Part shown: piece by piece, positions 5,601 through 43,400 of the stretch
Layout: each line of letters opens with the position of its first letter
Position numbering within the stretch: the first letter of the stretch is position 1
Origin: Xestospongia bergquistia
Lineage: Eukaryota; Porifera; Demospongiae; Haplosclerida; Petrosiidae
Length of the DNA stretch: 64,000 nucleotides
Assembly (NCBI GenBank): GCA_963965975.1
Contig: OZ014416.1
Coordinates: 8,536,432 to 8,600,431 of the forward strand
Direction: 5' to 3'
Program-made: the position numbers and the translations under genes
Notes under the pieces: model-generated
Seen by the model: the letters and a program-made list of their open reading frames with translations, nothing else
Database searches by the model: none
What the model was told of the DNA's origin: nothing

Positions 5601-8600
5601 GTCCACTTACTCTTAAAATATAATGCTGATCCTAATATTTGTGACAAGGTCAGTTTGTATTGTATATAGATATTGTTGTATGTACTACATAGTATTAAGT
5701 CTATATCATACTAGTACAGGATATATAATGTATAGTGTGAGTTAGTGATATAATTGATGTTAATATTGTACTAGTTAATGTAACATATAATAATTAATTT
5801 CTGTAGTGTCAGGAGACACCCTTATATTGGGCCTCATATAAAGGTCATACTGAGATAGTCCAGTTACTCTTAAAATATAATGCTGATCCCAATATTTGTA
5901 ACAAGGTCAGTGTGTATTATGTATAGATATTGTTGTATGTATTACATAGTATTAAGTCTATATCATACTAGCACAGGATATATAGTGTATAGTGTGAGTT
6001 AGTGATATAATTGATGTTCATATTGTACTAGTCAATGTAACATATAATAATTAATTTCTATAGGATAAGTGGACAGCTTTACATTGGGCCTCAAGAAATA
6101 GTCATACTGAGATAGTCCACTTATTCTTAAAATATAATGCTGATCCTAATATTTGTGACAAGGTCAGTTTGTATTGTATATAGATATTGTTGTATGGTAT
6201 TAAGTCTATATCATACTAGTACAGGATATATAGTGTATAGTGTGAGTTAGTGATATAATTGATGTTAATATTGTATTAGTCAATGTAACATATAATAATT
6301 AATTTCTACAGAATCAAAGGACAGCTCTACATTGGGCCACAAAAAATAGTCACACTGAGATAGTCCAGTTATTCTTAAAATATAATGCTGATCCTAATAT
6401 TTGTGACAAGGTCAATTTGTATTGTATATAGATATTGTTGTATGGTATTAAGTCTATATCATACTAGTACAGGATATATAGTGTATAGTGTGAGTTAGTG
6501 ATATAATTGATGTTAATATTGTACTTATATAATAGTCAATGTAACTTATAATAATTAATTTCTATAGGATCAGTGGACAGCTTTGCATTGGGCCTCAAGA
6601 AATGGTTGCACCAAGATAGCCTATATACTTTTAAAACATAAAGCTGATCCCAATATTTATAAAAAGGTCAGTGTGCATTGTGTATAGATATTGTATGTAC
6701 TACATAGTATTAAGTCTATATTATAGTAGTACAGGATATATAGTGTATAGTGTGAGTTAGTGATTGTTAATGTTGTACTAGTCATTATTACCTACAATAA
6801 TCAATATCTATAGGATCAGCAGACATCTCTACATTTGGCCTCAAGTAATGGTCACACTGAGATAGTCCAGTTACTCTTGCAGCATCAAGCTGATCCCAAT
6901 ATTTGTGACAACGTCAGTGTGTATTGTGTATAGATATTGTTGTATGTACTACATAGTGTTAAGTCTATATCATATGAGTACAGGATATATAACGAGTTAG
7001 TAATATAATTGATGTTAATGTTGTACTAGTCAATGTAAGATATAATAATTAATCTCTATTGGGTCAGGAAACAGCTCTACATTTGCCCTCAAGTGATGGT
7101 CATACTGAGATAATACTAAAATAGTCTAGTTACTCTTACAACATCAAGCTGATCCTAATATTTTTGATATATTAAAATATTATATATTAATATTTTGGTC
7201 TGTATATTACTTTATTGTTGATAATTTACTTTTTGTTAGTATGGTGATACCGCATTGCATATCGCCTGCTATAAAGGTTATTTAAATGTTATTAGCTGCT
7301 TGCTATCTGAAGGAGCAGATATAAATGTTAAAAACAATGAAGGTAAAACTCCACTGGATGTATGTGAAGATACAAACAAGGAGGAAATTGTTAGTCTCTT
7401 TAACAAATATAATCCAAAGAGAGGTAAGGTGTTATTAAAGATGAACAACATTACATACTCACACATTCCTTATTTGTTATTATCTAGTTTTGGAAGATGT
7501 GTCTAAGTGGAATATTGAAAATGTTGAAGAAGACCAGGTCTTTGAGAAAAGAGAATATGGAGTCATGTTAGTTATTCCACCATCAGCAGTAGAGAAGAAA
7601 AAAGAAGTTAAAACTGAAGTTAAGGTTGTTACACCTGAGGAAACAGATGCCATTCTCCCTCCTGATGTTGAGCTTGTGAGCTGTTTCTATAAAATTGAAA
7701 CAACTGGAAAATTTTCAAAACCTATTGAACTTTATCTTCAACATAATGTTGAACTCACATCACAAGAAGAATGTAAACAGTTAGCCTTTATAAAAGCTAA
7801 GGGTCCACCACCTTATAAATTTGAGTTAGTGCCCACTGATGTACAAGAGTTTAGACCTTATGACAACTCTGGAGTTGTTAGACTCTGTGATTTGTCTCTA
7901 GTTGCTGTAGTTAAGAAATTGTTTCAAAAACTAAAGAGTGCTCTATTTCGACAACTATCATGCAGTTATATAATGACAGTTTTTGTCAAGCAAATGATGA
8001 AATCTTGTTGGGAAATACAAGCAGTAGTCACAAAGAATCTTGGACCTTTCTTAAAGGTATATTTGACAAATAATAAAAAGAATAATAGTTTTTATCATTA
8101 GAATTTTTTAAAGATATTAATATTATTCATAATATACTCTTGTATTTGTTAGAGGGTAAAGACTGAGGCTTGTTTTGAAAGTTGGAAGAGAATAGAACCA
8201 GTCAGTTTTTTCTTTGATCCTGTCATTAATGAAGTGACAATTACTAATGAGTACTATGAGATCAAGCCAATGATCTATCCATTTAAAGTAAAGTATTTAG
8301 TTGATATTATTACTTTGTTATATTTATTGTATTAAAGGTCTCTAAGGAAGTAGTTGATAAATGTCAACCTGATACTGCCCTGCCTTATTTAAGATTTCAA
8401 GCCTTTCTTAAAGATGATAAAGAGGTTACTGACCTTGAGCTCAGTTTTAAAGGAATGAGAGAAGAGACAAGTTTAGTGATTGCTAGTTATGATTTGCAAC
8501 AAATGAAAGGTATGGAATTTAGACAATTAAATTGTTATTTCATTAATGCATAGAAAATGTAATAATAATAAAATAACTTTCCAAGGCTAAATTACTTTTA

Positions 8601-11130
8601 TAATTTTATGTAGATATTTCTGCTCCTTCATTTCCTGCTACTCTTTCTACTAGTCAACCTAGTTCTACCATCAGTACCCTACCTCATCCTACTTCTACAA
8701 CATTTCCTCTTTCTCCTACTTCAATTATTGCTAGTACTCCTAGTTCTGTTGATAACCAATCTTCTATTGGTACTCCTCCTATTGTCAGTGATCCTTCTCC
8801 TTACAGTACAAAATCTTCAAACATTCCCAATGACTTGTTATGTGAGTCATTTAAGTGTAAAATGAAAGTTGTTATTAGATATTGTACTTTAACATTTTGT
8901 AATAGTATGGATAAGCATTTTTTCATTAGATAAGGAGCATCATTTGACAATGTTACTTCATCCAATTAAGTACAAGTGGGATACTATTGGTGAACAACTT
9001 AAAGTGCATTTTAGTGATATAAAGTCTGCTGAGTACAATGTGCCATATGAAAAGATTATGCTTTCACATTATATAAATATATTGTTATTATATAAAGGCA
9101 TTTTATTAATTAGGTAAGGAACCAAAGAAGCATCACCTGATGACATTACTTCACCCAATTAAGTATGAGTGGGATATTATTGGTACACAACTTGGTGTAC
9201 CAGATGTTTATATAAAATGCACTTTTGAGGAACGTCAACATACCAGAAAACTCTCTGAAGTCCTTCAGGTCTGGATAGATAACAGAACTCGTCCAGTTTG
9301 TTGGCAAACAATTATTACTGTTGTAGAAGAGCCACCTGTAGAAAACAAAGTAGTAGCTGATGATATATATCAGTTCTTAACAAGACCAGATATTCAGAAG
9401 GAATATCTATCTTCTCATCATCAGACTGGTAAATAAAATTTTATTATGTATATAAATATTGTTATAACTCTAGATCACTTGATCACTATATTTAATTCTC
9501 CTCCTCAAATTCCACCAAAACCTACTCCACCTACTCCACAAAAAGGTATTAGTCCTAACAATTATTGTATATTAATAACATTTTTCATTTGTTTGTCATT
9601 ATAGGTCGCTCTATGTCTACTGTTATTCGTCCTCCAATTCCACCAAAACCCTCTACAAGGAAAGGTACACAATAGACTCATAAATACTTATTCATAATTT
9701 ATTACTGTAGGTCGTCCTTTATCTTATCATCCACCTCCTATTGCAACAAAACCTACTAAGAAGAAAGGTACTAGAATAATTTATTTCTGTATGCTCCTGG
9801 AGAATGAATGATCAATGTTTTTTTTCTAGTGGAGATAGATGAAATGGAACAAGAAGCTCCGTTAGAATCATCTAATCCTATTGGAGTAAGAACTATTTTA
9901 AAAACTATCAAAATATCTTTATCTTTCTTAGTTTGCTGCTCATTGTCTTCATAAACAAGCTAAACAATGGGAGGAGAAAGATAATGATATGATAGTAGCT
10001 ACTAAACGAATGGCCAGACTGATGATGAAAATGTCAAAGTTTGCCAAGTAAGTGTCATAGAATGAAATGTGTGAATTTTGTGTAATGTGCTGTTATCACT
10101 TAATAAAATGATGAAATTAGATTATATCAACTATAAATTACAATACTTTATAGTTACATATAATCATTTGCCATTCATTACAATATAAACATTTTTTTCT
10201 GTACAACATGTTATTTGATTGAGTATATACTTAATTCACTGCTATGTTGTGGTATTATTAATTTACATAGTGATGAAGTTGATGAAGTGACATCCAAAGA
10301 GGATTTCATGGAAACAGCTATCCTTATAACAACAGAGAGTGAAGAAGTTATCAAAAAGGCTAAGAAAGTTGCTACTTTTTGCAAAGATGAGAATCTTAAC
10401 AAGGTGAGGAAAATTAATATATTATAGTAACTATATAGAGAAAGTGATAGCTTGATATGTTCTTCTATAAAAGTGATGATATTACTATATTAAATTTGTA
10501 TTGAATGTAATATATTTTTGCACAACATTTTATACAAATATACAAAGATGCCATACTGAGCAACTTGTGTTATATATTTCAGAGAAGTTGTATATATACA
10601 GTCTTAATAACCTATAGATTCATATATAGACAAGTTATATTATTATATGTAGAGAGAACTTTTACTACATAGAGAGAATTTTTACTCTACCATGTTGCTT
10701 GCTTACAGCTCTTGTTTGTTGTATAATACATTTTTAAATTTTTTTTATCTCAACTATTATAGAGTTTGGTACAAAGTTATGAAAAAATTGAAACCATTGC
10801 TCATCAACTTCAAGCAAATGTTTCTGTAGAGAATACCAGACAAAAAGGAATAGGTAATAATGAATATAATTGATTATAATAATTAATATTAAGTGATAAG
10901 TAGTAGTTTAAAGTCATTCATTTTACATAGACCCAAAAGAAGATACAGAAGCCACTCAACTGTTGACAGTCAATGCTGAAAACCTAATGTCTGCAGTGTC
11001 TGAAGTACTCAGTATTACTGAGAGTGCTATAATAGCAGTACCTCCTGAAGATCATGGTCAACTGATTGGTCTAATAAGTTGGGTTAAAAGTTCGTCTGAA
11101 GCTACATCACCTTTAATTGATTTTATATAA
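2636..11130 (+). CDS. gene A: ankyrin-ZU5-Death-proline motif-vinculin tail protein
   Basis: Span of a multi-exon gene with a deduced protein of about 1303 residues (1270 if the stop-bearing exon is skipped). Exons: 2636-2674, 3144-3242, fourteen 99-nt ankyrin exons (3587 to 6912), 7240-7423, 7488-8056, 8153-8287, 8338-8509, 8614-8841, 9114-9428, 9474-9545, 9605-9664, 9711-9767, 9830-9885, 9932-10047, 10271-10403, 10763-10853, 10931-11130. All junctions are AG/GT except one GC donor, and phases agree throughout. The start [13 protein letters not shown] opens a 39-nt exon present in every copy. Likely a cytoplasmic adaptor linking an ankyrin-bound partner, Death-fold signalling and actin. One ankyrin exon carries TGA, so this copy needs exon skipping or is becoming a pseudogene. 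Confidence 0.8.
3144..7423 (+). repeat. gene A ankyrin repeat exon array
   Basis: The N-cap exon 3144-3242 is followed by 99-nt, phase-0 exons starting at 3587, 3762, 4019, 4282, 4531, 4779, 5036, 5293, 5550, 5807, 6064, 6312, 6568 and 6814, then the terminal 184-nt exon 7240-7423. Each 99-nt exon is one ankyrin repeat of the form [22 protein letters not shown] ending near A-D-P-N. The exon plus intron unit is usually 257 bp and the introns are nearly as alike as the exons. Exon 5293-5391 carries TGA at 5314-5316. The exon at 3587 ends at a GC donor. A degenerate unit lies at 7061-7180. Confidence 0.9.
7061..7180 (+). pseudogene. decayed ankyrin exon in gene A
   Basis: Clearly derived from the 99-nt unit: GGT CAG GAA ACA GCT CTA CAT is recognisable, as is the closing GCT GAT CCT AAT ATT. 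The acceptor AG has become TTGG, an extra segment after GAG ATA brings an in-frame TAG, and the donor after the repeat is gone. It should be spliced over, with exon 6814-6912 joining to 7240. Confidence 0.8.
7488..8056 (+). other. gene A ZU5 domain exon
   Basis: 569 nt, entered in phase 1 and left in phase 0, about 190 residues. The first half matches the ZU5 pattern: [12 protein letters not shown], then alternating hydrophobics, [15 protein letters not shown], and [11 protein letters not shown], corresponding to the family's core of IPP-A, PP-L-S and a K/RPV/I strand. The second half (about residues 110-190, ending TKNLGPFLK) is specific to this family. In ankyrins, UNC5 and PIDD, ZU5 lies between the recognition module and the Death domain, as it does here. 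Confidence 0.8.
8153..8509 (+). other. gene A post-ZU5 exons (UPA position)
   Basis: Two exons, 8153-8287 (45 codons) and 8338-8509 (57 codons plus 1 nt), separated by a 50-nt intron. They encode a conserved soluble segment with [11 protein letters not shown] and [11 protein letters not shown]. The position between ZU5 and the Death domain matches UPA in ankyrin, UNC5 and PIDD, and the predicted strand-rich character fits. I cannot show UPA homology from motifs alone. Confidence 0.5.
8614..8841 (+). other. gene A Ser/Thr/Pro-rich linker exon
   Basis: 228 nt, phase 1 in and out, encoding a low-complexity linker rich in Ser, Thr and Pro that ends IPNDLL. The donor TTGTTAT|GTGAGT is the same in B and D, and C has TTGTTGT|GTGAGT. 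The linker is longest here and in gene C (222 nt) and much shorter in B (78 nt) and D (93 nt), so length varies freely as expected for a disordered tether. Confidence 0.65.
8930..9113 (+). pseudogene. partial extra Death domain exon in gene A
   Basis: After acceptor TTTTTTCATTAG (ending 8929) the sequence encodes the first 40 or so residues of a Death domain ([11 protein letters not shown] is intact), then loses similarity after the Asn-Val-Pro-Tyr region at about 9050. No donor follows. The next acceptor, TTAATTAG at 9113, opens the complete Death domain exon in the same phase. The linker donor at 8842 can therefore skip this remnant cleanly. Confidence 0.65.
9114..9428 (+). other. gene A Death domain exon
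   Basis: 315 nt, phase 1 at both ends, 105 residues. It shows the Death-fold pattern Y-x-W-x-x-I-G-x-x-L-x-V, an L-S-E-V-L-Q-V-W-I helix, C-W-x-T-I-I-x-V-V-E and a final I-x-x-F-L helix. It is two residues shorter than the 321-nt exons of B, C and D, and the region after the VPD turn is diverged (CTFEERQHT in place of [11 protein letters not shown]). It likely forms homotypic Death-domain contacts. Confidence 0.8.
9474..9767 (+). other. gene A three proline-lysine motif exons
   Basis: Exons 9474-9545, 9605-9664 and 9711-9767, all phase 1 to 1. Each ends in a motif of the type PP-x-I-(P/A)-x-KP followed by Lys: [26 protein letters not shown] and [12 protein letters not shown]. These look like SH3 ligands (PxxPxK-like) placed immediately before the vinculin tail, just as vinculin has a proline-rich strap before its tail. 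Partner identity is unknown. Confidence 0.7.
9830..11130 (+). other. gene A vinculin/alpha-catenin-type tail exons
   Basis: Exons 9830-9885, 9932-10047, 10271-10403, 10763-10853 and 10931-11130. Matches to the vinculin tail, in order, are [19 protein letters not shown] (vinculin has a similar KW..KGNDII-AAKRMA), LMMKMSKFA, an amphipathic helix ending [17 protein letters not shown], a Q-x-Y-E-K-I-x-T-I-A-H-Q-L segment, [17 protein letters not shown] and a final ISWVKS. This order reproduces the helical bundle that binds F-actin and acidic lipid in vinculin. The head domain is absent. TAA is at 11128-11130. Confidence 0.8.
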
Positions 11131-15424: not shown

Positions 15425-15485
<61 letters not shown>

Positions 15486-15491
15486 GTGTGT

Positions 15492-15584
<93 letters not shown>

Positions 15585-22021: not shown

Positions 22022-25000
22022 ATGGCAGCTATAAGACGCTTTTTTAATAGAAGGAATCAAGTGAGTTTGTATAATACATGTACTATATAATGTAGTACAA
22101 ATATTTTATATCATTGTTGCTATCCCTTCTAGAAATGTACATTAGTAAGGTTATTTATAGTATATAACAATGTAGAGAGTACAGTAGTCTAATAGTAGAC
22201 AATTATCTACTGCATATTATTAGTAGAATAAAGCAGAGCTGGCAAAACAAGTTGAGTGAATGTGGAATAATTTCTAATAAAATTAAGTTATTACTATTTA
22301 TACATTATTGGATCTGTATTTTTAGAGACACATTAACTTTATTGTAAGTTATCAATGTATTATTAACATGAATGAAGTTGAAGTACTCAATTAATAAACT
22401 GATAATTAATATTAATTAAAATTAGGTTATTACTATTTAAAACGTATTGGCTCTTTATTTTAACAGTTAAAGACACACCCTCCATTGAAAGTTATATATG
22501 TATTATATAATATGTATATTACTATTTTCAGAGCAATGATTTACCTCTTCTCAATGCTGCAAAAAATGAAGACCTAGAGGGAGTGATGTCAGCTCTTAAG
22601 AATGGAGCAGATGTAAATTATAGAGATGAGGTTAGTTTTAAATAATAATACTGTATCTAATATAAATGTTTTTCAATATATTTAGTAAAAATTCTAAATA
22701 CTTTCTAATTGATACTGAAAACAGTTTAATACTTAATGACATCTGAAACTAGCATGTTTTGTTATATTAATTGTTGAACATAATTCCACTGTTTAGTGAA
22801 ATGTATTAGTCAATGTAACATATAATAATTAATTTCTATAGTATCAAGAGACTGCTTTATATTGGGCCTCAAGAAATGGTCATATTGAGATAGCACAGTT
22901 ACTCTTACAACATCAAGCTGATCCCAATATTTATGACGAAGTCAGTGTGTATTGTGTATATATATTGTTGTATGTACTACATAGTGTTAAGTCTATATCA
23001 TACTAGTTCAGGATATATAGTATATAGTGTGAGTTAGTGATATAATTGATGTCAATAATGTACTTGTCAATGTAACTTAAAATAAATAATTTCTATAGGA
23101 TCAGTGGACAGCTTTGCATTGGGCCTCAAGAAATAGTCATACTGAGATAGTCCAGTTACTCTTACAACATCAAGCTGATCCCAATATTTATAACAAGGTC
23201 AGTGTGTATTGTGTATGAATATTGTTGTATGTACTACATAGTATAAGTCTATATCGTACTAGTTCAGGATATATAGTGTATAGTGTGAGTTAGTGATATA
23301 ATTGATGTTAATATTGTACTAGCCAATGTAACATATAATAATTAATTTCTATAGGATCAGTGGACAGCTTTACATTGGGCCTCATATAATGGTCATACTG
23401 AGATAGTCCAGTTACTATTGCAACATCAAGCCAATCCCAATATTCATAACAAGGTCAGTGTGTATTGTGTATAGATATTGTTGTATGTACTACATAGTAT
23501 TAAGTCTATATCATACTAGTACAGGATATATAGTGTATAGTGTGAATTAGTGATATAATTGATGTTAATATTGTAGTAGTCAATGTAACTTATAATAATT
23601 AATTTCTATAGGATCAGTGGACAGCTTTACATTGGGCCTCAAGAAATAGTCATATTGAGATAGTCCAGTTACTCTTAAAACATCAAGCTGATCCCAATAT
23701 TTTGGACAAGGTCAGTGTCGACTATGTATAGATATTGTTGTATGTACTACATAGTTTAAGTCTATATCATACTAGTACAGGATATATAGTGTATAGTGTG
23801 AGTTAGTGATATAATTGATGTTAATATTGTACTAGTCAATGTAACTTATAATAATTAATTTCTATAGTATCAACAGACTGCTTTATATTGGGCCTCAAGA
23901 AATGGTCATATTGGGATAGTCCAGTTACTCTTACAACATCAAGCTGATCCCAATACTTATGACAAGGTCAGTGTATATTATGTATATATATTGTTGTATG
24001 TACTACATAGTATTAAGTCTATATCAATCTAGTACAGGATATATAGTGTATAGTGTGAATTAGTGATATAATTGATGTTAATATTGTACTTGTCAATGTA
24101 ACTTATAATAATTAATTTCTATAGGATCGGGAGACAGCTCTATATTGGGCCTCATATAATGGTCATACTGAGATAGTCCAGTTACTCTTACAACATCAAG
24201 CCAATCCCAATGTTCATAACAAGGTCAGTGTATATTATGTATATATATTGTTGTATGTACTACATAGTATTAAGTCTATATCAATCTAGTACAGGATATA
24301 TAGTGTATAGTGTGAATTAGTGATATAATTGATGTTAATATTGTACTAGTCAATGTAACTTATAATAACTAATTTCTATAGGATCAGTGGACAGCTTTGC
24401 ATTGGGCCTCAAGAAATAGTCATACTGAGATAGTCCAGTTACTCTTAAAATATAAGGCTGATCCTAATATTTGTGACGAGGTCAGTGTGTATTGTGTGAT
24501 GTTAATATTAATATTGTCCTAGTCGGTGTTACTTATAATAATTAATTTCTGTAGGATCAAGAGACAGCTCTACATTGGGCCTCATATAAAGGTCATACTG
24601 AGATAGTCCAGTTACTCTTACAACATCAAGCTGATCCCAATATTTATAACAAGGTCAGTGTGTATTGTGTATGAATATTGTTGTATGTACTACATAGTAT
24701 TAAGTCTATATCATACTAGTACAGGATATATAGTGTATAGTGTGAGTTAGTGATATAATTGATGTTAATATTGTACTAGTCAATGTAACTTATAATAATT
24801 AATTTCTATAGGATCAGTGGACAGCTTTACATTGGGCCTCAAGAAATAGTCATACTGAGATAGTCCAGTTACTCTTAAAACATAAAGCTGATCCCAATAT
24901 TTGTGACAAGGTCAGTGTATATTATGTATAGATATTGTTGTATGTACTACATAGTATTAAATCTATATCATACTAATACAGGATATATAGTGTATAGTGT

Positions 25001-28000
25001 GAGTTAGTGATATAATTGATGTTAATATTGTACTAGTCAATGTAACATATAATAATTAATTTCTATAGAATCAGAGGACAGCTCTACATTGGGCCACAAA
25101 AAATAGTCACACTGAGATAGTCCAGTTACTCTTAAAATATAATGCTGATCCTAATATTTGTGACAACGTTAGTTTGTATTATGTATAGATATTGTTGTAT
25201 GTACTACATAGTATTAAATCTATATCATACTAGTACAAGATATATAGTGTATAGTGTGAGTTAGTGGTATAATTGATGTTAATATTGTACTAGTCAATGT
25301 AACTTATAATAATTAATTTCTATAGAATCAGAGGACAGCTCTACATTGGGCCACAAAAAATAGTCACACTGAGATAGTCCAGTTACTCTTAAAATATAAT
25401 GCTGATCCCAATATTTGTGACAAGGTCAATGTGTATTATGTATAGATATTGTTGTATGTACTACATAGTATTAAATCTATATCATACTAGTTCAGGATAT
25501 ATAGTGTATAGTGTGAGTTAGTGATATAATTGATGTTAATATTGTACTAGTCAATGTAACTTATAATAATTAATTTCTATAGGATCAGTGGACAGCTTTA
25601 CAAAAGGCTTCAGGAAATGATTGTACTGAGATAGTCCAGTTACTCTTAAAATATAATGCTGATCCCAATATTTGTAACAAGGTCAGTGTATATTATGTAT
25701 AGATATTGTTGTATGTACTACATAGTATTAAGTCTATATCATACTAGTACAGGATATATAGTGTATAGTGTGAGTTAGTGATATAATTGATGTTAATGTT
25801 GTACTAGTCAATGTAACTTATTATAATTAATCTCTATAGGATCAGAGGACACCTCTATATTGGGCCTCAAGAAAAGGTTATATTGAGATAGTCCAGTTAC
25901 TCTTACAACATCAAGCTGATCCTAATATTTGTGATATGGTTAGTATTAGACTCACTTTGTTGATAATTTACTTTTTGTTAGTATGGTGATACTGCATTAC
26001 ATATTGCCTGCAGTGAGGGTAATGTTAATGTTATTAGCTGCTTGCTATCTGAAGGAGCAAATGTAACTGTTAAGAATAATAATGGTAACACTCCACTTGA
26101 AAAATGTCCAGATGCAAGCAGGAATGATATTTTTAGTCTCTTTAACAAGTATAATCCAAAGAGAGGTGGGATAAACAATGAACAACACTACACACTCACA
26201 TATTCCTTATTTGTTATTATCTAGTTTTGGAAGATGTGTCTAAGTGGAATATTGAAAATGTTGAAGAAGTCCAGGTCTTTGAGAAAAGAGACTATGGAGT
26301 CATGTTAGTTATTCCACCATCAGCAGTAGAGAAGAAAAAAGAAGTTAAAACTGAAGTTAAGGTTGTTGTACCTGAGGAAACAGATATCATTCTCCCTCCT
26401 GATGTTGAGCTTGTGAGCTGTTTCTATAAAATTGAAACAACTGGAAAATTTTCAAAACCTATTGAACTTTATCTTCAACATAATGTTGAACTGACATCAC
26501 AAGAAGAATGTGAGCAGTTAGCCTTTATAAAAGCTAAAGGTCCACCACCTTATAAATTTGAGTTAGTGCCAATTGAAATTGATCAAAAGTTCATGCCTAA
26601 TGACAACTCAGGTGTTGTAAGAGTCTCTGATTTCTCTATATTCAGCATTGTCAAGATCAAGCAAAAGTTAAAAAGTCTTTTCTTTCGATCACCATCTTCC
26701 AGCTATGTGATGACATTATTTTTCAAGCATTTGTTAAGTTCCAGTTGGGCAATCCAAGCAGTGGTCACAAAGAATCTTGGACCTTTTCTTAAGGTAATCA
26801 ATTTCAAGTAAAGTAATTTTGTACTAAGTTAACACAATCCTCAATATATATATTATATCTACTATTTTTTTTGTATTAGAGAGTTAGCACTGACAAATGT
26901 TTTGAAGGTTGGAATAAGATAGAAACATTCTCTTTTCACTTTGGTCCAGAAGTCAAAGAAGTGAAGTCTTTACTTGACAATGACTACTATGAAATCAATC
27001 CATTAAAAATACCATGTCAAGTAAGATGTTAAACCTTTTTAATATAAAGGATCATAATATTATTTGATAAGGTCACAAAGGAAGCTGTTGATAAAAGTCA
27101 ACCTGACACTGCCCTACCTTTCTTAAAATTAAAGGCCTCACTCAAAGCCAACCAAGAGCTTAAAGATTTAGAGCTCACATTTAAAGGAATGAAAGATGGA
27201 GAGAGTTTAGTTATCGCAAGAGAAGAATTACAACAAATACAAAGTAAGACAGGTATGAGATATTAAAGATACTGTTGTAATCATAATTGTTCTGAATTAT
27301 AATTAATTTATGCTATTCTTTAGAGGATGTCCCCACTGCTCAATCTGTTTCCAAACATTCAGAGCCCTTGTCTCAAAAAGAAATTCCAAATGACTTGTTA
27401 TGTGAGTCATTTAAGTGTAAAATGAAAGTTGTTATTAGAGATTGTACTTTAACATTATGTAATAGTATGGATAAGTATTCTTCTTCATTAGGTAAGGTAC
27501 CAAAGAAGCATCACCTGGTGATGTTACTTCATCCTATTAAGTACAAGTGGGATACTATTGGTGAACAACTTGAAGTACCTTATGGTGATATAAAGTCTGC
27601 TGAGTACAATGAGGCATATGACCATACCAAAAAACTCTCTGAAGTCCTTCAGGTCTGGATAGATAAGAAAACTCATCTAGTTTGTTGGCAAACAATTATT
27701 ACTGTTGTAGAAGAGCCACCTATAGAAAACAAAGTAGTAGCTGATAATATATATCAGTTCTTAACAAAACCAGATATTCAGAATGAATATCTGTCTTCTC
27801 TTCATCAGACTAGTAAATAAAATTTTATTATGTATATAAATGTTGTTATAACTCTAGATCAGCTGTTCACTACATTTTATTCTCCTCCTCAAATTGCACC
27901 AAATCCTACTCCAAAAAAAGGTATAAATGCTAACAATTACTGTATATTAAAGAACACATACATTTTTCATTTGTTTGTCATTATAGGTTGCTCTATGTCT

Positions 28001-29520
28001 ACTGCTATTCATCCTCCAATTGCACCAAAACCCTCTACAAAGAAAGGTACACAATAGATTCATAAATACTTATAATTAACTAGAATAATTTATTTCTGTA
28101 TGCTCTTGGAGAATGAATGATCAATGTTTTTTTTTCTAGTGGAGATAGATGAAATGGAACAAGAAGCTCCATTACAATCATCTAATCCTATTGGAGTAAG
28201 AACTATTTTAAAAATTATCAAAATGTCTTTTTCTTTCTTAGTTTGCTGCTCATTGTCTTCATAAACAAGCTAAACAATGGGAGGAGAAAGATAATGATAT
28301 GATAGTAGCTACTAAACGAATGGCCAGACTGATGATGAAAATGTCAAAGTTTGCCAAGTAAGTGTCATAAAATGAAATGTATACTTTAGTTAACTTATAT
28401 GTACATTTTTCTTACTGATCTTTTATTGTATATATATGTACAACATACAAGTATATCTGTAGTTATAGAATTATGCTCTGACTAATGGTTTACTTTATGT
28501 TTTGATGATATTTCTTTTATAGAGATGAAGAAGGTGATGTTACTTCTAAAGAAGATTTTATACAAACAGCTAAACTTATTGTCAAAGACAGTAAAGAGGT
28601 TGTTGATATAGCAACAAAAGTTGTTGAAGTTTGTACAGACACACAACTGAGAAATGTGAGTTTATAGTTAGATAATAAAATTGTACCATAATTTTTAATT
28701 ATTAGTAATATATGGGGTGATTAATTGATTGTATAATTTATAATTTGCTAGCATTTCTTCATTTAATTGATTAGTCATGATTATAGGGAAAGTCAGTTTT
28801 ATTTACACCTGATATATAACTGTTTATAAACTTCTTTTTCAACTAGTTTTGTATTTTCATTACAGACTCTATCACAAGTTATTGATGGTATTCCAAACTA
28901 TGCTACTCAACTCAAAATTAATGTTGATGTACATTCAAGAAGAGGAGGAGATAGTATGTTATAAATTGTGAAGTATTAGTATCCAATGATTGATATAATC
29001 TACAAAACAAAGGATTTTTTTGACTATGATCAATCTTAGCTATAACAAAATACCTTAAAATAAGGCTAATGATTTTAAAAGCTTATAATTGGTTAAAGAC
29101 TCCAAAGAAATAACTTGATTATTTACATATTATCATCACTGTTATGAACTCATTCTACAAATGTCAAAGTGCAGTTCATTATATTAAACTATTATGTACA
29201 TATCCTGTATAAACTTGAGAGAATACCTATATTGTAAATTGTTATAGTTAATATATAGTTATTATATAATTATTAGTTCATTATTATATTATAATAGTAC
29301 ATGTGTCTTTATTATAATATATTTTACATATAATATTTATTATATGTATTTTACAGATCCAGAGGGAGATAAGGAAGCTACTAGATTGTTGACAGTTAAT
29401 GCTGAGAATCTTATGACTGCTGTGGGTGTAGTACTTAATACTACAAAGAGTGCTTTAATAAAAGTACCTCCAGAAACTTGTGCACATTTGACTGGTCTAA
29501 GCTGGATCAAAAAATTGTAA
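22022..29520 (+). CDS. gene B: ankyrin-ZU5-Death-proline motif-vinculin tail protein
   Basis: Deduced protein of about 1192 residues. Exons: 22022-22060, 22532-22630, thirteen 99-nt ankyrin exons (22842 to 25938), 25982-26165, 26225-26793, 26880-27020, 27072-27252 (or ending 27243), 27324-27401, 27492-27812, 27858-27920, 27987-28046, 28140-28195, 28242-28357, 28523-28655, 28866-28953, 29357-29520. Start [13 protein letters not shown]. No internal stop in any exon, so this is the cleanest copy. It lacks the third proline exon and has a short linker. Its ZU5 C-terminal part, the next exon and the last three tail exons are clearly more diverged than its Death domain, pointing to a mosaic history. 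Confidence 0.85.
22532..26165 (+). repeat. gene B ankyrin repeat exon array
   Basis: N-cap 22532-22630. 99-nt phase-0 exons start at 22842, 23099, 23355, 23612, 23868, 24125, 24382, 24555, 24812, 25069, 25326, 25583 and 25840. The terminal exon is 25982-26165. All thirteen are open with usable splice sites. Most units are 256-257 bp apart; the intron after 24480 is only 74 bp because its middle has been deleted. Exons 25069 and 25326 are nearly identical (both start Asn-Gln-Arg-Thr-Ala), a recent duplication. Confidence 0.92.
26225..26793 (+). other. gene B ZU5 exon
   Basis: 569 nt. The ZU5 core ([12 protein letters not shown] to [11 protein letters not shown]) is almost identical to the other copies. 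From about residue 115 it diverges: [20 protein letters not shown] and a run [18 protein letters not shown] replace the [13 protein letters not shown] version. Exons 26880-27020 and 27072-27252 follow in the UPA position. Confidence 0.8.
27492..27812 (+). other. gene B Death domain exon
   Basis: 321 nt, phase 1-1. Core [36 protein letters not shown] and IYQFL. The donor is CTA|GTAAAT where A and C have CTG|GTAAAT. The upstream 90-nt intron 27402-27491 is open in frame. Confidence 0.85.
27858..28046 (+). other. gene B two proline-lysine motif exons
   Basis: 27858-27920 encodes [12 protein letters not shown] (KP changed to NP). 27987-28046 encodes [11 protein letters not shown]. The third exon found in A and C is missing; the junction lies around 28065-28082, where sequence jumps from the intron before it to the intron after it. 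Confidence 0.7.
28140..29520 (+). other. gene B vinculin-type tail exons
   Basis: Exons 28140-28195, 28242-28357, 28523-28655, 28866-28953 and 29357-29520. The first two are practically identical to gene A, including [15 protein letters not shown]. The last three diverge: [20 protein letters not shown], a [19 protein letters not shown] segment, and [17 protein letters not shown] ending LSWIKKL with TAA. Despite divergence the pattern stays vinculin-like; TQLKIN resembles vinculin's own TQLKI segment. Confidence 0.8.
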
Positions 29521-34476: not shown

Positions 34477-37400
34477 ATGGCTACTATAAAACACTTTTTT
34501 AATAAAAGGAATCAGGTGAGTTTATATAATACATGTACTATATAATGTAGTACAAATATTTTATATCATTGTTGTCAATGAACATAAATATTATCTCTTC
34601 TAGAAAGTGTACATTAATAAGGTTACTTATAGTATATAACAATGTATAGGGTCCAGTAGTGTAATGATAGACAATTATCCATATTATTAGCAAATTAAAA
34701 CAGAGCTGTCAAGACAAAGTGGGAAAATGTGGAGTAATTCCAAAGAAAATTAAGCTATTACTATTTATAAGTTATTGGATCTTTGTTTAAACTCTTGAAG
34801 ACACACCCTCCATTAAAAGTTATCTTTTATTATAATCTCTATCTTACTATTTTCAGAACTATGAATTATCTTTATACAATGCTGCTAAAAATAGAGACCT
34901 AGAGGGAGTGATGTCAGCTCTTAAGAATGGAGCAGATGTAAATTATAGAGACAAAGTTAGTTTAAAATAATAATTCTGTTTCTGGTATAAATGTCTTTCA
35001 ATAAAATTAGTAAAAATACTTAATATATTTACTTGTTACTGAAAACATCATAATAATTAATGACATTTCAAACTAGTAATGTTTTATTATATTATTATTA
35101 GTGAACTTAATTCCATTGTTTAATGAAATGAAATACTTTCACTTACAATAAAATGATGACTTATTAATAGAACAATTGATTGAATATTATACATGACACA
35201 CCTCTCTATCAGAACAATTATTAGAATATCTTTTAATGCGTACTGATGTTAATATTGTACTAGTCAATGTAATTTATAATAATTAATTTCTATAGGATCA
35301 GGAGACAGCTTTATATCATGCCTCAACAAATCGTCATATTGAGATAGTCCAGTTACTCTTACAACATCAAGCTGACCCAAATATTTGTAACAAGGTCAGT
35401 ATGTATTGTGTACAAATATTATTGCATATATTACACAGTATTAAGTCTATATCATACTAGTACAGGATATATAATGTATAATATGAGTTAGTGATATAAT
35501 TGATGTTAAATTTCTGAAGGCTCAGTCACACATGTCAATGGTGTTTGGCCTAGTTTCCTAACTTCATATTAGAGAATCTAAGTTAATTTGTAGTATAATT
35601 TTAATTATGGCATTAGCCACACCCTGCCATGTGTGATAGGAGTGGTCAGATAAGAATATATAAACCCAAGGTAATCCTAACACCTCAGCTTTTTTAAACA
35701 ACACAAAAATTGATCTTATAATTAGCAGTATTATTGAAAATAATCATTATAGTTAGTATATATGTAATATACATATCTTATCACATATCAATGGAATGTG
35801 GCGGGTGGGAGCCATTGATATACTTAACTTCACCTTCTTCATATAACTCATAATAGCATTCAACAACTTTGTAGTCTTAGCCATTCTATAATTAATGTTG
35901 TATTAGCCAATGTAACTTTTATTAATTTCTCTAGGATCAAATAACAGCATTATGTTATGCCTCAACAAATGGCTACACTGAGATAGTTCAAATACTCTTA
36001 AAATATAAAGCTGATCCCAATATTTATAACAAGGTCACTGTGTACTGTGTATAGATATTGTTGTATGTACTACATACTATTAAGTCTGTATCATACTAGT
36101 ACAGAATAGTGTGAGTTAGTCATAATAATTGATGTTAATATTGTACTAGTCAATGTAACATATAATAATTAATTTCTGTAGGATCAGGAGACAGCTCTAC
36201 ATTGGGCCTCATGTAAGGGTCACACTGAGATAGTCCAGTTACTTTTACAACATCAAGCTGATCCCAATATTTGTACTACGGTCAGTATGTATTGTGTATA
36301 GATATTGTTATATGTACTACATAGTACTAAGTCTATATCATACTAGTACAAGATATATAGTGTATAGTATGAGTTAGTGATATGATTAATGTTAATGTTG
36401 TACTAGTCAATGTAACATATAATAATTTATTTCTGTAGTATCAGTGGACAGCTTTACAAGAGGCTTCAAGAAATGGTCATACTGAGATAGTCCAGTTACT
36501 CTTAAAATATAATGCTGATCCCAATATTTGTGACAAGGTCAGAGTGTATTGTGTATAGATATTATTGTATGTACTACATAGTATTAAGTCTATATCATAC
36601 TAGTACAGGATATATAGTGTATAGTGTGATTTAGTGATATAATTGATGTTAATATTGTACTAGTCAATATAAATTATAATAATTAATTTCTCTAGTATCA
36701 GTGGACAGCTTTACATTGGGCCTCAAGTAATGGTCATACTGAGATAGTCCAGTTACTCTTAAAATATAATGCTGATCCCAATATTTGTGACGAGGTCAGT
36801 GTGTATTATGTATAGATATTGTTGTATGTACTACATAGTATTAAATCTATATCATACTAGTACAGGATATATAATGTATAGTGTGAGTTAGTGATATAAT
36901 TGATGTTAATATTGTACTAGTCAATGTAACTTATAATAATTAACTTCTGTAGGATCAGCAGACAGCTCTACATCGGGCCTCATATAAAGGTCACGCTGAG
37001 ATAGTCCAGTTACTCTTAACATATAATGCTGATCCCAATATTTGCAAAAAGGTTGGTGCATATTCTGTATAGATATTGTTGTATGTACTACATAGTATTA
37101 AGTCACTGGTACAGGATATATAGTGTATAGTGTGAATTAGTAATATAATTGATGTTAATGTTGTTCTAGTCAATGTAACATATAATAATTAAATTCTCTA
37201 GTATCAGTGGACGGCTCTATTTTGGGCCTCATTTAAAGATCACACTGACATTGTCCAGTTACTCTTACAACATGTAGCTGATCCCAATATTTGTAACACA
37301 GTCAGTCTGTATTTATGTATACATATTGTTGTATGTACTACATAGTATTAAGTCTATATCATACTAGTACAGGATATATAGTGTATAGTGTGAGTTAGTG

Positions 37401-40400
37401 ATATAATTGATGTTAATGTTATACTAGTCAATGTACCTTACAATAATTAATTTCTCTAGTATCAGTGGACAGCTCTATTTTGGGCCTCAAGAAATGGTTA
37501 TACTGAGATAGTCCAGTTACTCTTAAAATCTAAAGCTGATCCCAATATTTGTAACGAGGTCAGTGTGTATTGTGTATAGATATTGTTGTATGTACTACAT
37601 AGTATTAAGTCTATATCATACTAGTACAGAATATATAGTGTATAGTGTGAGTTAGTGATGTTAATATTGTACTAGTCAATGTAACTTATAATAAATAAAT
37701 TTTTGTAGGATCAGGAAACAGCTATACATTGGGCATCATATAATGGTCATACTGAGATAGTCCAGTTACTCTTACAACATAAAGCTGATCCCAATATTTG
37801 TGACAAGGTCAGTGTGTATTGTATATAGATATTATTGTATGTACTACATACTATTATGTCTATATCATACTAGTACAGGATATATAGTGTATAGTGTGAT
37901 TTGGTGATGTAGTTTACGTTAATATTGTACTAGTTATTGTAATTTATAATATTTCATTTCTCTAGAATCAGCTGACAAGTTTATATCAGGCCTCATATAA
38001 AGGTCACACTGAGATAGTCCAGTTACTCTTAAAATATAATGCTGATCCCAATATTTGTGACAAGGTCAGTGTGTATTGTGTATAGATATTGTTGTATGTA
38101 CTACATAGTATTAATTCTATATCATACTAGTACAGGATATATAGTGTATAGTGTGAGTTAGTGATATAATTTATGTTAATGTTGTACTAGTTAATGTAAC
38201 ATGTAATAATTAATTTCTGTAGTATCAGCAGACAGCTTCACATCGGGCCTCAAGTAATGGTCATACTGAAATAGTCCAATTACTCTTAAAATATAAAGCT
38301 GATCCCAATATTTGTGACAAGGTTAGTTGTATTGTGTATAGATATTGTTATATATACTACATAGTATTAAATAGTGTTGTTTTAGTAAACTAAAACTAAA
38401 ACTAAAATGTATTTAGTAGACCCTAAAACTTTTATTAAACTAAACTAAAAAATAGAGACCAACTAAAACTAAAATTTTTAGCTGCCAAAAACTAAAATAA
38501 TATTAAAATTAAAGCTGAGTTATGTTATTTTACTAATATTTACTAATATTAACATACTGACAAACCTCAACTTAGAATGTGAAGTCCTTCTTAGAAAACA
38601 GAAAATATGTGTATCTATGACCTGTGATTATTTGATTGCCTATTCTTACATGATTGCAAAATTAAGTGAATCAAGTAAAATAATATTCACTAACATAGAA
38701 AACTATATCAAGTTACTAAACTAGTACTAACTAAAATTGCTTCACCAACTCATTGCTAAAACCAAACTAAACTAAAATAAAATCAAATTGAAAAACTAAA
38801 TTAATACTAACTAAACTAAACTAAAATGTATTTTATAACCCTTCACTAATACTAAACTGAACTAAAATATTTTTTTCCTTACAAAAACAACATTAGTATT
38901 AAGTCTATATCATACTAGTACAGGATATATAGTGTATAATGTGAGTTAGTGATATAATTGATGTTAATATTGTACTAGTCAATGTAACTTATAATTAATT
39001 TCTGTAGTATCAGCAGACAGCTTTACATTGGGCCTCAAGTAATGGTCATACTGAGATAGTCCAGTTACTCTTAAAATATAATGCTGATCCCAACATTTGT
39101 AACAAGGTCAGTGTGTATTGTGTGTAGATAATGTTGTATGTACTACATAGTATTAAGTCTATATCATACTAGTACAGGATATATAGTGTATAGTGTAATT
39201 TAGTGATATAATTGATGTTAATATTGTACTAGTCAATGTAACATATAATAATTAATTTCTCTAGTATCAGCAATGTAACATATAATAATTAATTTCTCTA
39301 GTATCAGCAGACAGCTCTACATCGGGCCTCATATAAAGGTCACACTGAGATACTCTTAAAATCTAATGCTGATCTCAATAGTTGTGACAAGGTCAGTGTG
39401 TATTGTGTATAGATATTGTTGTATGTACTACATAGTATTAAGTCTATATCATACTAGTAAAGGATATATAGCTTATAGTGTGAGTTAGGGATATAATTGA
39501 TGTTAATGTTTAAGTAGTCAATGTAACATGTAATAATTTCTATAGGAGCAGGAGACAGCTCTACATTGGGCCTTAGGGAAGGGTTACACTGAGATAGTCC
39601 AATTACTCTTAAAACATCAAACTGATCCCAATATTTGTGATATGGTTAGTATTAGACTCATTTTGTTGATAATTTTCTTTTTGTTAGTATGGTGATACTG
39701 CATTACATATTGCCTGCAGTGAGGGTAATCTTAATGTTATTAGCTGCCTGCTATCTGAAGGAGCAGATGTAACTGTTAAGAATAATAATGGTAATACTCC
39801 ACTAGAAAGATGTCAAGATACAATCAGGAATGAAATTTTTAGTCTCTTTGCCAAGTATAATCCAAAGCGAGGTGAGGTGTTATTAAAGATGAACAACATT
39901 ACGCACTCACACATTCTTTATTTGTTATTATCTAGTCTTAGAAGATGTGTCTAAGTGGAATATTGAATATGTTGAAGAAGACCAGGTCTTTGAGAAAAAA
40001 GAGTATGGAGTCATGTTAGTCATTCCACCATCAGCAGTAAAGAAGAAAGAAGAAGTAAAAACTGAAGTTAAGGTTGTTGCACCTGAGGAAATAGATATCA
40101 TTCTCCCTCCTGATGTTGAGCTTGTGAGCTGTTTCTATAAAATTGAAACAACTGGAAAATTTTCAAAACCAATAGAACTTTATCTTCAACATAATGTTGA
40201 ACTGACATCACAAGAAGAATGCCAGCAGTTAGCCTTTATAAAAGCTAAAGGTCCACCACCTTATAAATTTGAGCTGTTGCCCACTGAAGGACAAGAGTTT
40301 AGACCTTATGACAACTCTGGAGTTGTTAGACTCTGTGATTTCTCTCCAGTAGCTGTAGTTTATCTTAAGAAAAAGTTTAAAAAAATAAAGAGTGCTCTAT

Positions 40401-43400
40401 TTCGGCAACCATCTTACAGTTATATAGTGACAGTTTTTGTCAAGCAAATGAGGAAATCTTGTTGGGAGATAAAAGCAGTAGTCACAAAGAATCTTGGACC
40501 TTTCTTAAAGGTATATTTAGCAATAATGAAAAGATTAATAGTTTTTGTCATTATAAGATATTAATATTATTCATAATGTGTTCTTGTATTTGTTAGAGAG
40601 TACTGAGGCTTGTTTTGAAAGTTGGAAGAGAATAGAACCAGTCTCTTTTTTCTTTGACCCTGTCATTAATGAAGTGACAATTACTAATGAGTACTATGAC
40701 ATCAAACCAATGATCAATCCATTTCAAGTAAAGGATTTAATTGATGTTTTGACTTTGTTATATTTATTGTATTAAAGGTGTCTAAGAAAGTAGTTGATAA
40801 ATGTCAACCTGATACTGCCCTGCCTTATTTAAAATTTCAAGCCTTTCTTAAAGATGATAAAGAAGTTATTGACCTTAAGCTCAGTTTTAAAGGAATGAGA
40901 GAAGAGGCGAGTTTAATGATTGCTAGTTATGATTTGCAACAAATCAAAGGTGTGGAAATTAGACAATTAAATCCTTATTTCATTAATGCATAGAAAATTT
41001 AATAATAATAAAATAACTTTACAAAGCTAAATTAATTTTATAATTTTATGTAGATATACCTGCTTCTTCATCTCTTTCTACTAGTCAACCTAGTACTACC
41101 AGTATCCTACCTTCTCCTACTTCTACAACATTTCCTGTTTCTCCTAATTCAATTGGTAGTACTCCTAGTCCTGTTGATAACCAATCTTCTATTGGTACTC
41201 CTCCTATTGTCAGTGATCCTTTTCCTTACAGTACAGAATGTTCATGTAAACTAAACATTCCAAATGACTTGTTGTGTGAGTCATTTAAGTGTAAAATGAA
41301 AGTTGTTATTAGAGAGTGTACATTAACATTATGGATAAGCATTTTTCTAAATTAGGTAAGGTACCAAAGAAGCATCACCTGATGATGTTACTTCATCCTA
41401 TTAAGTACAAGTGGGATACTATTGGTGAACAACTTAAAGTGAATTTTGGTGATATAAAGTCTGCTGAGTACAATGAGGCATATGACCATACCAGAAAACT
41501 CTCCGAAGTCCTTCAGGTCTGGATAGACAAAAGAACTAGTCTGGTTTGTTGGAAAACAATTATTACTGTTGTAGAAGAGCCACCTGTAGAAAACAAAGTA
41601 GTAGCTGATGATATATATCAGTTCTTAACAAGACCAGATATTCAGAATGAATATCTATCTTCTCATCGTCATACTGGTAAATAAAATTTTATTATGTATT
41701 TAGATAATGTTATAACTCTAGGTCAGCTGATCACTACATTTAATTCTCCTCCTCAAATTGCTCCAAAACCTACTACAAAAAAAGGTATAAGTGGTAATCA
41801 TTTTTGTATATTAAAGAACACATACTTTTTTCATTTGTTTGTTATTATAGGTCGCCCTGTATCTACTCCTATTCGTCCTCCAATTGCACCAAAACCTGCT
41901 ACAAAGAAAGGTAAACAATAGACTCATAACTACTTATTCATAATTTATTACTGTAGGTCGTTCTTTATCTTATCATCCACCTCCAATTGCACCAAAACCT
42001 ACTAAGAAAAAAGGTACTAGAATAATTTATTTCTGTATGTTCCTCGAGAATGAATGATTATTTTTTCCTTTTCTAGTGGAGATAGATGAAATGGAACAAG
42101 AAGCTCCATTACAATCATCTAATCCTATTGGAGTAAGAACTATTTTAAAAACTATCAAAATATCTTTATCTTTCTTAGTTTGCTGCTCATTGTCTTCATA
42201 AACAAGCTAAACAATGGGAGGAGAAAGATAATGACATGATAGTAGCTACTAAACGAATGGCCAGACTGATGATGAAAATGTCAAAGTTTGCCAAGTAAGT
42301 GTCATAAAATGAAATGTGTGTATTTTATGTAATGTACTCTTATCACTTAATAAAAGGACGACATTAGATGATATCAACTATCAATTACAATACTTTATAG
42401 TTACATTTACCATAAGGGTACAAATTTTCGAGGGTTTAAATTTTCGTGTTTTTTAAATTTTGCTTTATTATTTAAATTTCGTGAGTATTAATTTTTGTGT
42501 TCAGTGGGTGTGAAGTTTAATAATGGGTGTGGTATAAGGGACGTGTTGTGATCACAAGCGTGATTTTCGAGAAATATGGCTACCTATTCCTATAAATCCA
42601 TAGTAAGAGGGTACCATATATACAAGAAAATCTGGGAGGCAGTTGACGGAGAAGTACTTCAGACAGTGTAAAAGAGAAAGAAATGACCGACATGAATCCC
42701 TCTGCATGATTATGCGTGGGTGGAATAAAAGTTAAATTTCGTGATAAAACAACAACCCACGAATACAGCGAAATTAAATCTCCCACAAAAATTTATACCC
42801 TTACGGTAATTCTTTGCCATTCATTATAATCTAAACATTTAACATTTATTAGGACATGTTACTTTATTGAGTTTACACTGCTATGTTGTGGTATTATTAA
42901 TTTACATAGTGATGAAGTTGGTGAGGTGACATCCAAAGAGGATTTCATGGAAACAGCTACCCTTATAATAACAGAGAGTGAAGAAGTTATCAAAATGGCT
43001 AAGAAAGTTGCTACTATTTGCAAAGATGAGAAAATTAACAAGGTGAGGAAAATTAATATACTATAGTAACTACATAGAGAAAGTGATAGCTTGATATGTT
43101 CTTCTTTAAAAGTGATGATATTACTATATTAAATTTGTATTGAATGTAATATATTTTTGCACAACATTTTATACAAATATACAAAGATGCCATACTGAGC
43201 AACTTGTGTTATATATTTCAGAGTTGTATATATGGTCTTAATAACCTATAGCTTCATATATGGACAAGTTATATTATTATATGTAGAGAGAACTTTTACT
43301 ACATAGAGAGAATTTTTACTCTACCATGTTGCTTGCTTACAATTCTTGTTTGTTGTATAATACATTTTAAAATTTTTTATCTCAATTATTATAGAGTTTG

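What the first reader, a model, noticed from the sequence alone, without database searches (positions are those of the whole stretch)
22022..29520. Ankyrin-ZU5-Death adaptor fused to a vinculin tail: a possibly undescribed architecture
Four complete genes encode ankyrin repeats, ZU5, a UPA-position segment, a Death domain, proline-lysine motifs and a vinculin/alpha-catenin-type tail in one chain, with consistent splice phases. Gene B is intact throughout. Ankyrins have ankyrin-ZU5-UPA-Death, and vinculin has a proline strap followed by a tail; here the two halves are joined. Such a protein could couple a recognition surface and Death-fold assembly directly to F-actin. The domain calls come from motifs in the sequence; the function is inference.
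Basis: partly seen in the sequence, partly recalled or inferred. Interest (0 to 1): 0.93.

Follow-up and report, generated by a model that had tools for sequence, protein, structure and literature searches.

The report
Death-domain proteins carrying a vinculin tail
In this animal genome a large family of immune-like proteins (ankyrin repeats, ZU5 and Death domains) has taken on the tail of the cell-adhesion protein vinculin, which suggests, but does not yet show, a death-type signalling adaptor tied to the cell's actin skeleton.

Summary
Gene B (22022-29520) reads as one 28-exon, 1192-residue chain with consistent GT-AG splice phases: 14 ankyrin stretches, ZU5, a FADD-like Death domain, proline motifs and a vinculin tail (Pfam Vinculin E 1.2e-36). 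It is no one-off: ZU5-Death-tail aligns over its whole length at 29 loci on four contigs, 23 of 29 without stop or frameshift in the best of four models. The 29 tails, with one more, form one clade (100/99) beside full-length vinculin genes of the same genome that share the tail's intron positions: one DNA-level capture, then spread, recombination and repeated loss or exchange. The tail is under purifying selection (median dN/dS 0.47; ZU5 0.27, Death 0.29).

Corrections: no UPA domain was found. The proline exons come from the ANK-ZU5-Death parent, not vinculin's strap. Gene A is irregular. Function is inference: gene B keeps only 4 of 11 chicken actin-contact letters, and 4 of 29 tails have Ala at I997. 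No transcript data; an intronic AATAAA may allow tail-less isoforms. In passing: an adhesion-type 7TM receptor with a vinculin tail.

The parts
22022..22060 (+). Gene B exon 1, start codon, [13 protein letters not shown]
   Evidence: similar first exons at 34477 (gene C) and 59988 (gene E)
22532..26165 (+). Gene B exons 2-16: ankyrin repeats; exons 2-15 are 99 nt each, phase 0
26225..26793 (+). Gene B exon 17: ZU5 domain
   Evidence: Pfam 23.7 bits on the exon, cut-off 21; 26 of 27 relatives match; best Foldseek matches are ankyrin and UNC5b ZU5, none at E<=0.001
26880..27252 (+). Gene B exons 18-19: segment in the UPA position; conserved in the family but no domain match
27324..27401 (+). Gene B exon 20: linker
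27492..27812 (+). Gene B exon 21: FADD-like Death domain
   Evidence: Pfam 21 bits, cut-off 22.6; profile of 27 exons finds FADD at 1.9e-4; six-helix model of low confidence
27816..27821 (+). AATAAA three bases into the intron after the Death exon; possible early polyadenylation signal
   Evidence: AATAAA within 100 nt in 10 of 29 loci
27858..28046 (+). Gene B exons 22-23: proline-lysine motifs ([23 protein letters not shown]), derived from the ANK-ZU5-Death parent
28140..28195 (+). Gene B exon 24: remainder of a vinculin strap exon ([18 protein letters not shown])
28242..29520 (+). Gene B exons 25-28: vinculin tail, stop at 29518-29520
3144..11130 (+). Gene A: same architecture; truncated extra Death exon 8930-9051 before the full one 9116-9427; model needs one frameshift; first exon not found; tail has Ala at the I997 position
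34477..43754 (+). Gene C: same architecture, clean from ZU5 on; tail has Ala at the I997 position
49743..54543 (+). Gene D: same architecture, one proline exon only, clean from ZU5 on; first exon not found
59988..64000 (+). Gene E: first and ankyrin exons; ZU5, Death and tail lie beyond the window (L012)

Best explanation
A multigene family of ANK-ZU5-Death proteins captured, once and at the DNA level, the last exons of a vinculin gene of the same genome, giving ANK-ZU5-Death-vinculin-tail proteins. Most likely mechanism: the diversified ankyrin array binds a target; ZU5 and the following segment hold or transmit the state; the FADD-like Death domain nucleates a Death-fold assembly; the vinculin tail, with no vinculin head in the chain to mask it, anchors that assembly to F-actin or membrane phosphoinositide. 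Shown by computation: the encoded architecture, its repetition, single origin and donor of the tail, and purifying selection. Inferred: recognition, assembly, actin or lipid binding, any signalling output, and that the full-length transcript is the main one.
For: One chain with consistent phases in gene B. Same order and essentially the same introns at 29 loci on four contigs, 23 of 29 clean, tail frame open in 28 of 29. Vinculin tail E 1.2e-36, vinculin rather than alpha-catenin type. Single clade 100/99 next to C1 vinculins with the same tail introns. Tail median dN/dS 0.47 over 391 of 406 pairs. FADD-like Death. Ile at 997 in 25 of 29 tails; actin-contact positions keep the donor residue no less than other positions (0.65 against 0.55). 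Ankyrin exons vary most at DARPin contact positions (P 0.0009; position list recalled).
Against: No transcript, protein or binding data. Gene B keeps the chicken letter at only 4 of 11 aligned actin-contact positions checked (Q983, I997, V1001, N1026), a C1 vinculin at 6 of 11; 4 of 29 tails have Ala at 997. The tail is less constrained than ZU5 and Death, close pairs approach dN/dS 0.9, and it is absent from 43 of 74 ZU5 loci in the lists used; on the ZU5 tree presence of the tail is no more clustered than shuffled labels. AATAAA after the Death exon in 10 of 29 loci. Death and ZU5 models are of low confidence and Foldseek gave nothing at E<=0.001.
Confidence: 0.5

Rival explanations
1. Structural linker: the proteins act as ankyrin-like scaffolds that join membrane proteins (ankyrin array) directly to actin through the vinculin tail, in place of the spectrin route of ankyrins. 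Death would be a passive module, as it may be in ankyrins.
For: Ankyrin-like order ANK-ZU5-Death, vinculin tail, proline motifs that could bind SH3 domains (sequence).
Against: Large, recombining, clustered family with varying ankyrin surfaces is unlike a housekeeping scaffold; a second ZU5 and UPA were not found; tail absent from many members.
Confidence: 0.18
2. Integrated bait: the vinculin tail is a decoy for microbial factors that attack vinculin-family proteins, built into an immune-like ANK-ZU5-Death receptor as decoys are in plant NLRs. Actin binding would be unnecessary and free to be lost.
For: Family expansion and recombination; repeated presence and absence of the tail; Ala at I997 in 4 of 29 tails. 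That microbes target vinculin and that plants use integrated decoys is recalled.
Against: Actin-contact positions are not lost faster than others (0.65 against 0.55); Ile at 997 kept in 25 of 29.
Confidence: 0.17
3. Seldom-used end: the main transcripts stop after Death or the proline exons, and the tail exons are a residual or minor alternative end.
For: AATAAA just after the Death exon in gene B and within 100 nt in 10 of 29 loci; tail-less relatives; two loci with broken chains; linker dN/dS 0.69.
Against: Constant order, phases and open frames at 29 loci and selection on the tail. AATAAA was not found near the Death exon in 19 of 29 loci and is expected often by chance in DNA of about 30% GC.
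Confidence: 0.15

Closest known systems
Ankyrins (ANK-ZU5-ZU5-UPA-Death; 4d8o is titled ankyrin-B ZU5-ZU5-UPA-DD)
   Same: Ankyrin repeats, ZU5 and Death in that order
   Different: One ZU5 stretch found, no UPA found, short linker, FADD rather than ankyrin as best Death match in the profile search, vinculin tail added
Vinculin (full-length genes on C1 of this genome; VIN1 6bfi)
   Same: Tail domain with 59-65% identity and the same three tail introns as the C1 genes
   Different: No head domains and no vinculin strap prolines; tail follows a Death-fold protein
UNC5/PIDD-type ZU5-UPA-Death proteins
   Same: ZU5 and Death in one chain; UNC5b is among the best Foldseek matches of the ZU5 model
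   Different: Ankyrin array in front, no UPA found, vinculin tail behind
Death/TRADD-N expansions of Amphimedon and other sessile marine animals (PMC8195603, passages)
   Same: Lineage-specific expansion, Death-like domains joined to ankyrin repeats, many one-off architectures
   Different: The word vinculin does not occur in that paper's text; TRADD-N was not found in gene B by Pfam

Membership tests
Vinculin family (PF01044), tail domain | Sequence match to the vinculin tail | tested here: met
   E 1.2e-36; vinculin 3e-29 against alpha-catenin 3e-10
Vinculin (whole protein) | Vinculin head domains | tested here: not met
   The only PF01044 stretch covers model 645-847 of 852
Vinculin (whole protein) | Strap prolines in front of the tail | tested here: not met
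   Break lies inside the vinculin strap exon; prolines come from the parent family
Vinculin (whole protein) | F-actin binding by the tail | not testable with these tools
   Residues only: 4 of 11 chicken contact letters in gene B, 6 of 11 in a C1 vinculin
Ankyrin | Ankyrin repeat array | tested here: met
   14 Ank stretches
Ankyrin | ZU5 | tested here: met
   23.7 bits on exon 17, cut-off 21; 26 of 27 relatives
Ankyrin | Second ZU5 | tested here: not met
   One ZU5 stretch only
Ankyrin / UNC5 / PIDD | UPA domain | tested here: inconclusive
   No match; the genome search rang in no control
Ankyrin / FADD-type adaptor | Death domain | tested here: met
   16 of 27 exons at E<=0.01, best 2.7e-7; profile finds FADD 1.9e-4; gene B alone is 21 bits, under the cut-off of 22.6
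NLR receptors | NACHT or NB-ARC domain | tested here: not met
   No such Pfam match in gene B at E<=1
ANK-ZU5-Death-vinculin-tail protein | Transcript spanning Death and tail exons | not testable with these tools
   Genomic evidence only

The most novel reading that the evidence does not exclude
In this lineage the vinculin tail became a movable cytoskeletal module. Captured once from a vinculin gene, it was attached to a diversifying Death-fold recognition family, making sensors that assemble on (or guard) the actin cytoskeleton, and passed on to the cytoplasmic end of an adhesion-type 7TM receptor, which would then bind actin directly.
Probability: 0.3. Interest if true: 0.9.

Novelty: new variant of a known kind. 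Interest (0 to 1): 0.72.

Why it matters
Death-fold assemblies and vinculin-type adhesion are usually treated as separate machinery. A gene family that joins them in one chain would make it directly testable whether innate signalling can be nucleated on, or gated by, the actin cytoskeleton, or whether an animal immune family uses a built-in cytoskeletal bait. The family carries its own controls: natural tails with Ile or Ala at the I997 position and tail-less relatives. It is also a clear case of exon capture with a donor-like gene still present in the same genome.

Tried and rejected
UPA domain: looked for with Pfam on gene B, a genome search that rang in no control, and an 11-member alignment against PDB and Pfam; nothing found. 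Not excluded, since UPA can diverge and no fold of the spliced segment was made.

Separate downstream gene for the tail: rejected as first choice because order, strand and phases repeat at 29 loci.

Retroposed vinculin tail: rejected, the introns came along at the same positions.

Alpha-catenin origin of the tail: rejected, alpha-catenins score far lower. The C13 gene L037, which I read as alpha-catenin-like from recall, is 31% identical with other introns; the other C13 gene (L038, 33%) scores best against vinculins but also has other introns.

Decoy signature (faster loss of actin contacts): tested, not seen overall.

Death model against PDB: nothing significant; ankyrin death domain 2yvi was 9th (E 3.7), FADD 17th (E 4.6).

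Organism: unnamed. A sponge seems likely but rests on recall (that VIN1 6bfi is a sponge vinculin); no call states it.

Model artefacts: a linear gap cost forced false stops in loci lacking a proline exon; one search repeated it with four query variants and kept, per locus, the one with fewest defects, which favours clean models. L013, L017 and L029 have two tail sets behind one ZU5-Death, and the models of L013 and L017 run to the second set. L033's linker model is unreliable, because repeated acidic exons fill the gap. The exon search printed nothing through a faulty filter and was redone.
Full report
What is there. The window lies in a 146-Mb assembly of 21 contigs (contig C6); split genes and the domains found make it an animal (inference). 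Gene B was rebuilt exon by exon: 28 exons, all 27 introns GT...AG, phases compatible throughout, 1192 residues, stop at 29518-29520. The coordinates of the finding are right. Pfam on the joined protein gives ankyrin repeats (14 stretches), ZU5 at about the cut-off, Death just below its cut-off, and the vinculin family at E 1.2e-36. The tail's best PDB matches are VIN1 6bfi (2.6e-33) and vertebrate vinculins, with alpha-catenins far behind.

The weak calls. With relatives the two weak domains become firmer. ZU5 matches at E<=0.01 in 26 of 27 aligned exons (best 7.7e-7). The AlphaFold model of the exon (best of five, pLDDT 65.8; the others 39-51) has ankyrin and UNC5b ZU5 structures as its eight best Foldseek matches, but the best E is 0.016, and a sequence profile of the exon finds nothing in the PDB. 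Death matches in 16 of 27 exons (best 2.7e-7), and their profile finds FADD death domains at 1.9e-4; the weaker hits, up to E 1, are death domains of THO complex subunit 1 and RIPK1 (that these two chains are death domains is recalled). The Death model has six helices but pLDDT 60, and Foldseek found nothing significant. Gene B's ZU5-to-Death segment alone finds nothing in the PDB. The segment in the UPA position matches nothing.

A family, not a single gene. Genome searches with gene B's exons list 150 ZU5-exon, 150 Death-exon and 132 tail-exon places; the first two lists are cut at 150 scored candidates. I took 74 of the 150 ZU5 places, mainly the strongest, 65 of the 150 Death places, and the tail places matching exon 25 or 28. 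Of the 74, 31 have tail exons downstream on the same strand and 43 have none in these lists. Spliced alignment of gene B residues 537-1192 to the 31 gives 29 full-length chains, on C6 (14), C1 (13), C3 (1) and C4 (1), and two broken ones, L034 and L035. Intron positions and phases agree apart from the linkers. With the full query 13 of 29 have no stop or frameshift; allowing for absent proline exons 23 of 29 do, taking per locus the best of four models. The tail frame is open in 28 of 29. In the window, C and D are clean from ZU5 on, A is irregular around Death, and a fifth gene runs over the window's end. The ankyrin parts of A, C, D and E were seen as exons but not modelled to the start codon.

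Where the tail came from. Vinculin-family exons outside the fusions lie on C13, on C1 at 25.60-25.62 Mb and on C3. On C1 two copies carry head-to-tail exons in order on one strand and a third has tail exons only; one of these tails scores best against VIN1 and vinculins (2.7e-46). In all three the internal tail introns fall at the same residues and phases as in the fusions, with 59-65% identity to gene B; the two C13 genes have other introns and 31-33% identity. On a tail tree of 35 rows the 29 fusion tails and one C3 tail form one clade (100/99) next to the C1 vinculins. So a vinculin gene's end was captured once, introns included. The break lies inside the vinculin exon that codes for the strap prolines plus [18 protein letters not shown]: the fusions keep only the second part. 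Proline stretches like exon 22 follow Death in 5 of 6 tail-less relatives examined (L043-L045, L047, L048; not L046; read as open frames), so they belong to the ANK-ZU5-Death parent.

Evolution. Median pairwise dN/dS (Nei-Gojobori, 29 sequences, 406 pairs; pairs with dS of 0.05 or less, saturated, or under 60% length dropped) is 0.27 for ZU5 (405 pairs), 0.33 for the segment before the linker (400), 0.29 for Death (396), 0.69 for the linker (400) and 0.47 for the tail (391). Pairs are not independent. The tail is kept by selection, less strictly than ZU5 and Death; close pairs reach 0.9. Synonymous distances differ between modules of one gene pair (C against B: Death 0.09, tail 0.47, segment 238-297 1.24), a sign of recombination between copies. 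On a ZU5 tree of 29 tailed and 6 tail-less rows the label changes six times, at least four forced by strong branches, no fewer than with shuffled labels: the tail has been lost or exchanged repeatedly. The 54 ankyrin exons of 99 nt found in the window vary most at the six positions randomised in DARPins (mean entropy 1.63 against 0.67 at the other 27, permutation P 0.0009). The position list is recalled and the exons are related, so this hints at a variable binding surface and does not prove it.

How it may work. The contact list for vinculin tail on F-actin and the effect of I997A come from PMC10721916 (passages); V1001 is recalled. Ile at 997 is kept in 25 of 29 fusion tails, gene B included; A, C, L011 and L016 have Ala. 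N1026 is kept in 29, E1042 in 26 (not in B), V1001 in 25, Q983 in 22 of 29. R976, N980, R987, R1039 and E1040 are kept in none, Q1018 in 2 (Glu in 26), and R1008 falls in a gap. Gene B keeps 4 of the 11 aligned letters; the C1 vinculin 25614k keeps 6 of 11 and also differs from chicken at N980, R987, Q1018, R1039 and E1040. Retention of the C1 vinculin residue at these positions (0.65) is not lower than at 83 others in the span (0.55). I therefore think actin or phosphoinositide anchoring of a Death-fold adaptor most likely (0.5), ahead of a structural ankyrin-like linker (0.18), an integrated bait (0.17) and a seldom-used end (0.15). No head domain is present to mask the tail, so it would be free unless another part hides it (inference).

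Against. There is no transcript evidence. An AATAAA lies three bases into the intron after gene B's Death exon and within 100 bases in 10 of 29 loci, so shorter isoforms are possible.

What is known. Ten paper searches were run; those for this combination listed no title or abstract start that describes it. They cover open-licence papers only; databases of predicted proteins were not searched, so the architecture may be annotated elsewhere. PMC8195603 (passages) describes Death/TRADD-N expansions with many architectures in Amphimedon and holds no mention of vinculin. PMC6208332 (passages) reports ankyrin-repeat and Death-domain genes among those up-regulated in sponges given microbial products. 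PMC12909245 (passages) holds no mention of vinculin; the passages seen of PMC6040629 and PMC13245172 mention vinculin only as itself. All domains are known; the combination is new to these searches, hence 'new variant of a known kind'.

Side finding. On C3 a tail of the same clade follows exons of an adhesion-type 7TM receptor: two 7tm_2 exons (6.5e-7 and 1.3e-8), with EGF (4.3e-6), Ig (1.1e-15) and HRM (2.6e-5, 25.0 bits, under its cut-off of 26.2) matches upstream and no match in a further frame. Between receptor and tail lie small acidic exons in phase 1; the last of them runs into the strap segment. The last 7TM exon has a donor in the fitting phase. The chain is open on paper; it has not been modelled as a whole.

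Noticed in passing
L049 and L036 (C3:8150500-8162900), mainly L036:143-3344: Adhesion-type 7TM receptor exons followed, in fitting phase, by small acidic exons and a complete vinculin-tail exon set of the fusion clade: a possible GPCR-vinculin-tail gene. The one paper search for it listed one paper, on alpha-actinin.
   Followed up: partly
L036:5960-6549 and 9418-9609: Two further partial vinculin-tail copies downstream of the 7TM-tail gene.
   Followed up: no
L033 (C3:8119300-8126900): ZU5-Death gene with ten or so acidic exons, of the kind seen in L036, between Death and the vinculin tail.
   Followed up: partly
window 13873-18192: Neighbouring ankyrin gene with three Death-like exons by tblastn (15962, 16701, 17226) and a fourth by eye in the open frame 17707-18192; no tail exon found.
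   Followed up: no
L013, L017, L029: Two vinculin-tail exon sets behind one ZU5-Death unit: double tail, alternative ends or a tail-only remnant.
   Followed up: no
window genes A and C; L011; L016: Natural Ala at the position of vinculin I997, the substitution used as an actin-binding-deficient control.
   Followed up: partly
genome-wide, clusters on C2, C3, C5, C7 and C10: 113 matches to the 7TM exon, many in clusters: a large 7TM receptor expansion.
   Followed up: no
C1:25.597-25.621 Mb (L039-L041) and C1:25694400-25698700 (L018): Tandem vinculin genes lie about 75 kb from a fusion gene; whether this marks the birthplace of the fusion is open.
   Followed up: no
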